NCBI RefSeq assembly: GCF_028281565.1
Contig: NZ_JANQJQ010000013.1
Location: 52,846-116,845, forward strand
Direction: 5' to 3'
Source of the DNA: Seonamhaeicola sp.
GTDB taxonomy: Bacteria; Bacteroidota; Bacteroidia; Flavobacteriales; Flavobacteriaceae
DNA: 64,000 nucleotides
Below are positions 13,612 to 57,162 of this stretch, piece after piece. A model generated the notes under the pieces. That model saw only the letters and a list, made by a program, of their open reading frames with translations. It did no database searches and was not told the DNA's origin. Within the stretch, counting starts at the first letter, position 1. Every line of letters begins with the position of its first letter. A program made the position numbers and the translations under genes.

Positions 13612-15003
13612 ATGCCTAAAAGCAGTATCCATTTCAATATATCAGAGCGTAAAGTATTACTGCGTATTTTTGATATCGTTTTTGTCCTGTTTGTACTTTA
13701 TTTTGTGGGGGATACCTTTGAATTTGACTACTTTTCCATAACTAGGGAAAACTGGAGATGGGTTTTCGTATTGATCCTTTACATTTCAATTTTTGGCTCT
13801 ATTTTCGAGCTATATGACTTACAGAAATCAAGTAAAATAGAAAAGATATCAACCAGTATTGTTTTTACAGTATCAGTTACGGTTTTATTCTATTTTTTAA
13901 CGCCGTTTTTCACACCGATTTTACCTGATAACCGTTTACAAATCGTTTATTTTTATTTCGCTATTCTTTTTGCATTGGTTTTATGGCGATTAGCGTATAT
14001 TACCTTTATAGTATCACCAAGGTTTTATAAAAAGGCCCTTATAGTTGGAGAAATTTCAAGTATTGAGACTATCATTGAAGCTTTCAAACTTGCCGATCCT
14101 AATTATAAGATCGTTGGGTTTGTTAATTGTGAGCTAAGTAAAAAAGAAAATATAAAGTTTAATGGAATAAAAGAATACAGTCCGAAGCAGTTAAGGCAAA
14201 TTGTAAAAGACGAATACATATCTGAAATTGTAGTTGCCAGTTACAATTCGGAAACCATCACGTATGAGATATATTATGCTCTTATTTCGCTTTTGGAAGA
14301 CGGGGTACCCATCAGGGAATATACCCAGGTTTATGAAGATTTAACCCAACGTATTCCAGTGCAGTTTGTTGGTAGGGATTTTTATAAATATTTCCCTTTT
14401 AGCCGAAGCAACCAGAACAAAATGTATCTCTTCTTTCACCGTTTGTTTGATATTTTAATCTCGATTGTGGGACTTGTTTTTGGTGTTGTGTTTTTCCCCC
14501 TGATTTTACTTGGAAATATTATAGCTAATAGAGGGCCGCTTTTTTACACACAAGAGCGTATTGGAAAAAACGGACGTCGTTTCAAAATTATCAAGTACCG
14601 CACTATGATAAAGAATGCAGAAAAGGATGGTGTGGCATGGGCCAAGAAAAAAGATTCAAGGATAACGCTGTTTGGAAGATTTTTAAGAAATACAAGGCTG
14701 GATGAGATTCCACAGTTTATAAACATTTTGAAAGGAGAAATGAGTTTGATCGGTCCAAGACCGGAACGTCCGTATTTTGTGAAAGAGTTGTCTCAAATGC
14801 TTCCTTTTTATGAAACACGACATATCGTAAAACCAGGACTTACAGGTTGGGCACAGGTTAAAACAAGATACGGCTCTTCTGTAGACGATAGTTTACTTAA
14901 ACTGCAATACGACTTGTATTATATAAAACACCGAAGCTTTTTACTGGATTTAAACATTCTCATCAAGACACTTAGTACAGTGATTTTCTTTAGAGGGCAA
15001 TAG
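13612..15003 (+). CDS. Exopolysaccharide biosynthesis polyprenyl glycosylphosphotransferase (initiating sugar transferase)
   Basis: Multi-TM N-terminus and C-terminal KIIKYRTM...LRNTRLDEIPQFINILKGEMSLIGPRPERP...KPGLTGWAQV. Confidence 0.93.
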   Translation: MPKSSIHFNISERKVLLRIFDIVFVLFVLYFVGDTFEFDYFSITRENWRWVFVLILYISIFGSIFELYDLQKSSKIEKISTSIVFTVSVTVLFYFLTPFFTPILPDNRLQIVYFYFAILFALVLWRLAYITFIVSPRFYKKALIVGEISSIETIIEAFKLADPNYKIVGFVNCELSKKENIKFNGIKEYSPKQLRQIVKDEYISEIVVASYNSETITYEIYYALISLLEDGVPIREYTQVYEDLTQRIPVQFVGRDFYKYFPFSRSNQNKMYLFFHRLFDILISIVGLVFGVVFFPLILLGNIIANRGPLFYTQERIGKNGRRFKIIKYRTMIKNAEKDGVAWAKKKDSRITLFGRFLRNTRLDEIPQFINILKGEMSLIGPRPERPYFVKELSQMLPFYETRHIVKPGLTGWAQVKTRYGSSVDDSLLKLQYDLYYIKHRSFLLDLNILIKTLSTVIFFRGQ

Positions 15004-54889: not shown

Positions 54890-56362
54890 ATGACTGCACA
54901 TCAAAATAAGATAGTAGGAGAGGGTTTAACCTACGATGACGTCCTTTTAGTTCCGGCATTTTCAGAAGTACTTCCGCGCGAAGTAAATATCCAAACCAAA
55001 TTCACACGTAACATTACCATTAATGTGCCTATAATTTCGGCCGCAATGGATACGGTTACAGAAAGTAAGATGGCCATTGCCATGGCACAGGAAGGTGGTA
55101 TTGGCGTTCTTCATAAGAATATGACCATTGAGGCGCAAGCTAACAAAGTAAGACGTGTAAAACGTGCGGAAAGCGGGATGATCATGGATCCGGTAACCTT
55201 ACCAATGGATGCTGTGGTAAGAGATGCAAAACGCGCTATGGCGGAACATGGTATCGGGGGGATTCCCATTGTTAATGATGAAGGTACCTTAAAGGGTATT
55301 GTCACTAACCGGGATCTTCGCTTTGAGCACAAAAATAAAAGGCCCATCGTTGAGGTAATGACCGGTGAAAACCTCGTAACCGCTCCGGTTGGAACGTCGT
55401 TATCGGACGCCGAGATCATTCTTCAAAAACATAAAATTGAAAAATTGTTAATAGTTGATGATAACTATAAACTTTCCGGTTTAATTACGTTTCGGGATAT
55501 TACCAAGTTAAGCCAGAAGCCCATTGCCAATAAAGATAAATACGGACGTTTACGTGTTGCTGCTGCCATAGGTGTTACAGCGGATGCTGTGGAGCGTGCC
55601 GAAGCTCTGGTAGGGGCGGGTGTTGATGCTGTGGTTATTGATACGGCCCATGGGCACACCAAAGGCGTGGTTACCGTTTTAAAAGAGATAAAAGAAAAAT
55701 TCCCGGAATTGGATGTTATTGTTGGAAATATAGCAACGGGTGCTGCCGCCAAATATTTGGTGGAAGCAGGAGCCGACGCTGTGAAAGTAGGTATTGGTCC
55801 CGGATCCATCTGTACGACGCGTGTAGTGGCCGGTGTTGGTTTTCCACAATTTTCTGCGGTTTTAGAAGTTTCTGCAGCCATAAAGGGAAGCGGTGTTCCT
55901 GTAATTGCCGATGGTGGTATCAGATATACAGGCGATATTCCTAAAGCCATTGCGGCCGGTGCGGATTCGGTTATGCTAGGATCGTTGCTGGCGGGAACTA
56001 AGGAATCGCCTGGAGAGACTATCATATATGAAGGTCGTAAGTTTAAATCCTATCGTGGCATGGGCTCTGTGGAAGCTATGAAACAAGGTAGTAAAGACCG
56101 TTATTTCCAGGATGTGGAAGATGATATTAAAAAATTAGTACCGGAAGGCATTGTAGGACGTGTCCCTTATAAGGGCGATCTATATGAAAGCATTCACCAG
56201 TTCATAGGTGGTTTACGTGCCGGTATGGGGTATTGTGGTGCCAAAGATATTGAAACGTTAAAAGCGCATGGGCAATTTGTAAAAATTACAGCCAGCGGCA
56301 TCAATGAAAGTCATCCACATGATGTGACCATTACCAAAGAATCCCCTAATTATTCAAGATAG
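54890..56362 (+). CDS. guaB: IMP dehydrogenase
   Basis: [17 protein letters not shown]; two CBS domains; [30 protein letters not shown]. Confidence 0.97.
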
Positions 56363-56382: not shown

Positions 56383-56518
56383 AAAAAACTGTCTAAAGAA
56401 TATTTGAAATTGTCATTCTGAATTTATTTCAGAATCTCATTTTACTGATTATTAGAGACTATGAGAACCTGAAACGAGTTCAGGTTGACAAAAATTTAGT
56501 TTTTTAGACAGCTTTTTT
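56383..56518. repeat. Nested inverted-repeat structure (terminator arms enclosing palindromic element copy D)
   Basis: Outer AAAAAACTGTCTAAA/TTTAGACAGcTTTTTT; inner ATTCTGAA/TTCAGAAT and AACCTGAA/TTCAGGTT hairpins; TGTCA/TGACA pair. Confidence 0.85.
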
Positions 56519-56538: not shown

Positions 56539-57162
56539 TTATTGCACGCCTTTTTGTTTGTTTATTTCATCTTGCAATTGACGTCTTACTTTTTGTTCGC
56601 GTTCCAGAGCAATTCTACGGTGCTCGTCAAACTCTTCTTCAATTTCAGCAAGGTTTTGTTTTGCCAGTTTGGTAACGGCATTACTGTTTTTAAACCTATA
56701 AATAAACAAGATAAGCAGTGCCAGTAAAGCAGCTATAATGGTCCACATAAGCATATTATAACCGGTTTTACTCATCTGCATACCAAACAGTGCCATACTG
56801 TCTTTTTCCTTATTGGTATTATCTAACGTGGTTTGCGTTTGTGTCAAATTGCTCTTTAACTCATTAATTTCTTTATCCTGACTTGTTATAGTGGCATTTG
56901 AATTAGATAATTCTTTCTTCAGCGTATTAATGGAATCTATAGTATGTCTTTGTAAGCTAAGAAACATACTGCGCTTAACGGCTTCATAAGCTTGCCCGTT
57001 AGTGCCCTTGAAATTACCGGATTTTCTTAGTACAAACTCGAATTTTTCGTTTATAGAACCATCGTTTATAGACTGTGATTGCTGACTTTCCTGCGCATTT
57101 AATGATGTAAACGAAATAAATAGAAAAAGGAAAATAAAAGTAGATAGCTTAAAGCGATTCAT
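56539..57162 (-). CDS. Hypothetical signal-peptide protein with coiled coil and one TM helix
   Basis: Signal peptide ending SLNAQ; heptad-rich TLKKELSNSNATITSQDKEINELKSNLTQTQTTLDN; TM MLMWTIIAALLALLILFIY; charged C-tail. Confidence 0.7.
   Translation of the reverse strand: MNRFKLSTFIFLFLFISFTSLNAQESQQSQSINDGSINEKFEFVLRKSGNFKGTNGQAYEAVKRSMFLSLQRHTIDSINTLKKELSNSNATITSQDKEINELKSNLTQTQTTLDNTNKEKDSMALFGMQMSKTGYNMLMWTIIAALLALLILFIYRFKNSNAVTKLAKQNLAEIEEEFDEHRRIALEREQKVRRQLQDEINKQKGVQ

What the first reader, a model, noticed from the sequence alone, without database searches (positions are those of the whole stretch)
56383..56518. Palindromic element apparently nested inside the guaB terminator
The outer arms AAAAAACTGTCTAAA (56383-56397) and TTTAGACAGcTTTTTT (56503-56518) form a good terminator stem, but the loop is about 105 nt. 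That loop contains element D with two further perfect 8-bp hairpins (ATTCTGAA/TTCAGAAT, AACCTGAA/TTCAGGTT) and a TGTCA/TGACA closing pair. This looks like an insertion into a terminator loop, giving a multi-branched structure between convergent genes.
Basis: partly seen in the sequence, partly recalled or inferred. Interest (0 to 1): 0.62.

Follow-up and report, generated by a model that had tools for sequence, protein, structure and literature searches.

The report
Transposon relic that replaced guaB's terminator
The odd hairpin after guaB is one copy of a 131-base jumping-gene relative (IS1182 type) found across many Bacteroidota, which at eight compared sites lies where relatives have an ordinary transcription stop signal and appears to have taken over that job.

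Summary
The palindromes are real and at the stated coordinates. The outer arms, however, are not an interrupted guaB terminator. They are the terminal inverted repeats (consensus GAGGCTGTCTAAAAAGT) of a dispersed 131-bp element, window 56385-56515. About 15 framed copies were seen in this genome, and the frame recurs in other Flavobacteriaceae and Bacteroidota. Closely similar ends bound intact ~1.7-kb IS1182-family insertion sequences in relatives, so the element reads as an IS1182 MITE. Inside lies an 80-bp head-to-head dimer of CGTC/TGTC-tagged REPs, which also occurs alone. At eight sites (three in this genus, including guaB; five between two related species) the relative has an ordinary terminator hairpin where the element sits. 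At the clearest sites the flanks are identical, the original hairpin is gone and there is no target duplication. This is the insertion mode reported for IS1272, an IS1182-family member that targets terminators and deletes their stem-loop. Outer arms plus retained A/T tracts form a new bidirectional terminator. So 'insertion into a terminator loop' becomes 'replacement of the terminator by a MITE that is itself a terminator'. Transposition and termination are inferred, not shown; this genome has no detectable IS1182 transposase.

The parts
54890..56362 (+). guaB (IMP dehydrogenase), upstream convergent gene
   Evidence: ORF of 490 aa; orthologues 92-95% identical in the same genus
56383..56388 (+). 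A-tract at the left end (gives the U-tract for transcripts of the minus strand)
   Evidence: sequence; copies are A-rich in the 8 nt to the left (0.65 vs 0.37) and T-rich in the 8 nt to the right (0.64 vs 0.38)
56385..56515 (+). 131-bp IS1182-type MITE (whole element)
   Evidence: ends set by comparison with copies GAGGCTGTCTAAAAAGT..ACTTTTTAGACAGCCTC; inner span CTGTCT..AGACAG is 123 bp, the modal length in other genomes
56385..56401 (+). left terminal inverted repeat (AAAACTGTCTAAAGAAT; 12/17 to consensus GAGGCTGTCTAAAAAGT)
   Evidence: similar ends on intact IS1182 elements
56499..56515 (-). right terminal inverted repeat (GTTTTTTAGACAGCTTT on +; 13/17 to consensus)
56411..56490 (+). 80-bp core TGTCA...TGACA: head-to-head dimer of CGTC/TGTC-type REPs
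   Evidence: dispersed: 46 genome hits, many without the frame; features match Di Nocera et al. 2013
56411..56438 (+). REP 1: tag TGTC, stem ATTCTGAA/TTCAGAAT, loop TTTAT, tail CTC
56463..56490 (-). REP 2: tag TGTC, stem AACCTGAA/TTCAGGTT (8 bp), loop 5 nt, 3-nt tail
56513..56518 (+). T-tract at the right end (U-tract for guaB transcripts)
56539..57162 (-). convergent neighbour gene (207 aa), also syntenic in relative G006

Best explanation
The structure is a 131-bp non-autonomous element (MITE) with the terminal inverted repeats of an IS1182-family subgroup, carrying a head-to-head dimer of CGTC/TGTC-tagged REPs. Inferred history: an IS1182-type transposase, now absent from this genome, inserted it at the intrinsic terminator between guaB and its convergent neighbour in the IS1272 manner: recognising the hairpin, deleting the stem-loop and making no target duplication. 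The element's inverted repeats, flanked by the host's remaining A- and T-tracts, then formed a new hairpin that terminates transcription from both sides. Shown here: repeat family, fixed ends and length, ends shared with IS1182, absence of the relatives' hairpin at orthologous sites. Inferred: transposition by IS1182 enzymes, and terminator activity.
For: (1) Repeat family: 46 matches in the genome, about ten including the outer arms; frame pattern 13+13 sites vs 3+2 for the reversed control. (2) Exact GGCTGTCTAAAAAGT occurs in 15 of 121 family genomes, with only 4 control hits in all, and inverted pairs with two exact arms lie 112 bp apart; 39 of 71 copies from many genera have CTGTCT..AGACAG = 122-124 bp although the inner palindromes differ. 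(3) Near matches to these ends bound intact ~1.7-kb IS1182 elements (L447, L448, L451, L452; transposase 443-466 bits, cut-off 270) and a decayed one in G106. (4) Eight sites have an ordinary terminator hairpin where the other species has the element: guaB/G006; L014/G001 and L017/G006; L276, L326, L321, L325, L340 between G106 and G143. At L276 the flanks TAGTTT|..|TTTCAT are the same in G106 and G145 and nearly so in G143. (5) No clear target duplication, as reported for IS1272, which targets hairpins, mostly terminators, and deletes the stem-loop (PMC4923244). (6) Framed copies: 25 convergent/29 tandem/4 divergent vs 38/147/52 for other gaps in the same loci; p = 2e-5 and 0.008. (7) A/T tracts flank the copies and outer stem positions 1-3 covary.
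Against: No IS1182 transposase was found in this genome, so the mover is assumed to be lost. At guaB only one relative (G006) keeps the convergent neighbour; G002-G005 show ordinary terminators but next to other genes, and G001 is cut off by a contig end. The intergenic sequence there is too diverged to show the exact junction; exact junctions come from another genus. In L327 the element sits beside a terminator that was kept, and in L269 no terminator was obvious in the other species. Flanking direct repeats are slightly longer than in shuffles (4.14 vs 3.81 +/- 0.11); A/T-rich flanks may explain it. Covariation counts are not corrected for relatedness, and the copies were selected by similarity to the consensus.
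Confidence: 0.8

Rival explanations
1. One reading: a palindromic (REP-dimer) element inserted into the loop of the guaB terminator, whose own arms are the outer stem.
For: The REP dimer does occur alone at many sites and inside more than one frame, so it behaves as a separable module.
Against: The outer arms are shared by copies throughout this and other genomes with a fixed total length. Relatives' guaB terminators have different stems. Nearly every true frame seen carries a core or a remnant of one; two short hairpins in G012 and G116 look like collapsed forms.
Confidence: 0.07
2. A REPIN-like element moved by a RAYT (IS200/IS605-type tyrosine transposase); the frame is just a conserved outer part of the REPIN.
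For: The core is two inverted REPs that can fold into one rod, like a REPIN; the genome has three Y1_Tnp hits.
Against: The RAYT loci read are flanked by other palindromes, except one unframed TGTCA dimer in L076 more than 1 kb from the gene. The published survey found no transposase associated with CGTC REPs. The frame matches IS1182 ends.
Confidence: 0.05
3. The element was added beside the old terminator by ordinary insertion, and the now redundant old hairpin was later deleted, perhaps through A/T-tract microhomology.
For: L327 shows an element next to a kept terminator; A/T tracts on both sides offer microhomology.
Against: Several sites show clean replacement with no remnant, one with about 96% and 91% flank identity between species; IS1272 does this in one step.
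Confidence: 0.15
4. An ordinary long terminator that evolved in place, with the repeat resemblance due to chance or to general terminator composition.
For: It is at a terminator position, and terminator stems are often similar in AT-rich genomes.
Against: Hits with E down to 1e-31 to other sites in the genome over the full length; fixed 123/131-bp length across genera.
Confidence: 0.01

Closest known systems
IS1272 / TnSha1 (IS1182 family), Furi et al. 2016, PMC4923244
   Same: IS1182 family; targets hairpins, most of them transcription terminators; deletes part of the stem-loop; no target duplication; repeated independent insertions into the same terminator
   Different: IS1272 is an autonomous staphylococcal element that can carry a resistance gene; here a 131-bp non-autonomous element in Bacteroidota, in which the inserted DNA is itself terminator-like, and in the cases seen the whole stem is gone rather than part of it
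CGTC-tagged REPs, Di Nocera et al. 2013, PMC3733652
   Same: tag CGTC/TGTC, 8-bp stem starting AT, 5-nt loop, 3-nt tail, mostly head-to-head dimers, mostly downstream of genes, present in Bacteroidetes (G. forsetii listed), no known transposase
   Different: here many dimers sit inside a larger fixed-length transposon frame; the passages read do not mention such frames
SPRITE/BOX/RUP and Correia-type MITEs
   Same: short dispersed palindromic elements that can resemble terminators and nest in each other (review PMC10969869)
   Different: different ends and hosts; no replacement of terminators described in the passages read
REPINs with RAYTs (Bertels and Rainey 2011, PMC3116915)
   Same: two inverted REPs forming a rod, dispersed in intergenic space
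   Different: no cognate RAYT; different tag (TGTC/CGTC, not GTAG); extra outer frame

Membership tests
IS1182-family MITE | terminal inverted repeats matching an IS1182 element | tested here: met
   L447, L448, L451, L452: intact IS1182 transposase between ends with 2-5 mismatches in all to the two 17-nt consensus ends; IS1182 elements of another subgroup (L458, L459) have other ends
IS1182-family MITE | small, non-coding, multi-copy, fixed ends | tested here: met
   131 bp; about 15 framed copies in own genome, 30 or more in G106
IS1182-family MITE | insertion at hairpins with loss of stem-loop and no target duplication (IS1272-type) | tested here: met
   eight orthologous site pairs; no clear duplication; exception L327
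IS1182-family MITE | transposase able to move it present in the same genome (not required for descent, required for present mobility) | tested here: not met
   0 matches to NF033551 in own genome; matches in G106 and in 53 of 201 family genomes
CGTC-tagged REP dimer | tag CGTC or TGTC, 8-9-bp stem beginning AT, 4-5-nt loop, 3-nt tail | tested here: met
   REP 1 at 56411-56438 fits in full (stem ATTCTGAA); REP 2 at 56463-56490 has an 8-bp stem beginning AA instead of AT
CGTC-tagged REP dimer | head-to-head dimer, intergenic, many copies | tested here: met
   46 hits, nearly all intergenic
REPIN/RAYT system | cognate RAYT gene flanked by the same REP | tested here: not met
   two RAYT loci carry other palindromes; the third has one unframed TGTCA dimer far from the gene
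Intrinsic bidirectional terminator | stable stem followed by a T-tract on both strands at gene 3' ends | tested here: met
   stem closed by A6/T6 tracts, -49.0 and -41.9 kcal/mol; convergent genes. A simple scan for short-loop terminators does not see it
Intrinsic bidirectional terminator | RNA 3' ends at the T-tract | not testable with these tools
   needs Term-seq or RNA-seq

The most novel reading that the evidence does not exclude
A class of 'terminator-healing' MITEs: IS1182-type ends that destroy the hairpin they target but are themselves a terminator, so insertion is nearly neutral. This would let them spread through gene 3' ends of a phylum and, as a by-product, carry CGTC-REP dimers that have no transposase of their own.
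Probability: 0.5. Interest if true: 0.7.

Novelty: new variant of a known kind. Interest (0 to 1): 0.55.

Why it matters
It links two loose ends. Terminator-targeting by IS1182-type elements was described from staphylococci; CGTC REPs are widespread but were reported to lack a transposase. Here a short IS1182-type element carrying a CGTC-REP dimer lies in place of ordinary terminators at eight compared sites, apparently without breaking termination. If confirmed, it is a mechanism by which bacterial gene 3' ends turn over quickly, and it gives a testable vehicle for a large orphan repeat family. It also warns that a terminator stem can be foreign DNA, not descended from the gene's own terminator.

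Tried and rejected
Rfam: only sub-threshold eukaryotic microRNA families, rejected as chance. RAYT/REPIN origin: RAYT loci checked, rejected. Literature searches by sequence string found nothing relevant. A second frame in G106 (TTTGTATATCCGTTTTGTAAC ends) was examined as a contrast: it has a 9-bp target duplication and clean empty sites, so the method does see ordinary insertions. An IS1182 transposase in the own genome was sought and not found. Simple terminator scan negative because of its short-loop rule. Pairing of the flanks beyond the GAGG ends was tested; it is mostly composition.

Full report
Observation. The described arms are all present at the stated places, and the region folds far better than shuffled sequence (-49 kcal/mol, z -7.7). 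The minimum-energy form is one long rod rather than a multi-branched loop. The element lies between guaB (54890-56362, +) and a convergent gene (56539-57162, -).

It is a repeat, and the outer arms belong to it. A search of the own genome with 181 bp gives 46 matches. Aligned copies fall in two sorts. Many contain only the 80-bp core TGTCA..TGACA. About a dozen contain the core inside the frame GAGGCTGTCTAAAAAGT..ACTTTTTAGACAGCCTC. The frame alone finds 26 sites in the genome against 5 for the reversed control, and some frames hold a different core of the type TGTCATATTGAGCTTGTCGAAATA.

The frame is widespread and of fixed length. The matches that have both arms are mostly in Flavobacteriaceae and other Bacteroidota (Flavivirga, Lutibacter, Algibacter, Mariniflexile, Tamlana, Flavobacterium and others), with a few MAGs labelled as other phyla. 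In 71 copies the span CTGTCT..AGACAG is 122-124 bp in 39, and 123 bp in this copy (56389-56511), although the inner palindromes differ between lineages. A search that did not ask for the core (exact GGCTGTCTAAAAAGT, 121 genomes) found 15 genomes with hits, 4 control hits in all, and pairs 112 bp apart. The whole element from GAGG to CCTC is 131 bp; here 56385-56515.

What was there before. In the same genus, G006 keeps the convergent neighbour and has AAAAAAGCTGCAATTTTTTAATTGCAGCTTTTTT after guaB. G004 and G005 have nearly the same hairpin, and G002 and G003 other short ones, next to other genes. Two further framed copies of this genome were compared: L014 against G001 and L017 against G006; both relatives have an ordinary terminator there. 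In another genus of the family, G106 and G143 gave exact junctions. At L276, G106 has TAGTTT[element]TTTCAT, while G143 and G145 have TAGTTT[AACGTCTCAATnnnATTGAGGCGTT]TTTCAT. G146 has the same kind of hairpin, and G142 and G144 carry another framed element at that spot. L326, L321, L325 and L340 show the same exchange with four other hairpins. L327 is an exception: the element lies beside a kept terminator. L269 is unclear.

Which transposon. In G106 a decayed 1.7-kb element has ends GAGGTCGTCTAAAAAGC..CAGACAGCCTC and remains of an IS1182-type transposase. Intact IS1182 transposases in other family genomes lie between the same kind of ends (L447, L448, L451, L452). IS1272, an IS1182-family element, is published to insert into hairpins, most of them terminators, with deletion of the stem-loop and without target duplication (PMC4923244). 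The framed copies likewise show no clear duplication and stem-loop loss. In contrast, a second frame in G106 carrying the same core has 9-bp duplications and clean empty sites.

What is inside. The core meets the published description of CGTC-tagged REPs: tag CGTC or TGTC, 8-bp stem usually starting with AT (REP 1 does; REP 2 starts with AA), 5-nt loop, 3-nt tail, head-to-head dimers, Bacteroidetes among the hosts, and no associated transposase (PMC3733652). Two RAYT loci of this genome are flanked by unrelated palindromes; the third has one unframed TGTCA dimer at a distance.

Function. Framed copies are enriched between convergent genes (25 of 58 vs 38 of 237 other gaps, p = 2e-5) and depleted between divergent ones (4 vs 52, p = 0.008). 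Flanks are A-rich on the left and T-rich on the right. Outer stem positions 1-3 keep complementarity beyond shuffles. This copy has GC-to-AT changes on both arms (GAGG to AAAA, CCTC to CTTT), although one of these pairs is now A-C. All this fits a bidirectional terminator; no RNA data were available.

Limits. No IS1182 transposase was found in this genome. The exact guaB junction cannot be read because relatives are too diverged. Copy counts are lower bounds. The gene-context test uses simple ORF calls. Why the total length stays at 131 bp while the core changes is not explained; it may reflect descent or a length demand of the transposase. Targeted literature searches did not find a described IS1182 MITE carrying REPs, but the library is partial.

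Noticed in passing
L382:13010-13154 and 14085-14229 (reverse-complement coordinates, G106), L364/L384: A second MITE frame (TTTGTATATCCGTTTTGTAAC.., inner span 144 bp) with a 9-bp target duplication carries the same kind of REP dimer; its transposase family was not identified.
   Followed up: partly
many loci, e.g. L152, L162, L175, L136, L050: The inner palindromes of the framed element differ by lineage while the 131-bp length is kept, even when TGTCA directly abuts one frame arm. Unexplained.
   Followed up: partly
L316 (G106) vs L342 (G143): Orthologous site with the core in opposite orientation and a different frame (GAAGCGGTCTCAAAAAC / GTTTTTGAGACCGTTTC), perhaps an inversion or a second insertion.
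   Followed up: no
L076:281-345 (own genome C5): Unframed TGTCATTCTGAATGAAACGAAGCATC dimer more than 1 kb from an open frame with a Y1_Tnp domain match.
   Followed up: no
L074 and L075 (own genome C32, C42): RAYT genes flanked by their own palindromes (GCGCGGATTTGTAATCCGTGCC; AGCGCTCGTTTGTAACGAGTGCTA).
   Followed up: no
L158, L167, L171, L173, L143: Framed or half-framed elements in MAGs labelled Treponema/Treponemataceae or Parcubacteria; transfer and binning error were not separated.
   Followed up: no
L445:1040-1095 (G106): 54-bp hairpin AAAGCTTTCTAAAAAGT..ACTTTTTAGAAAGCTTT with only a core remnant, possibly a collapsed element kept as a terminator.
   Followed up: no
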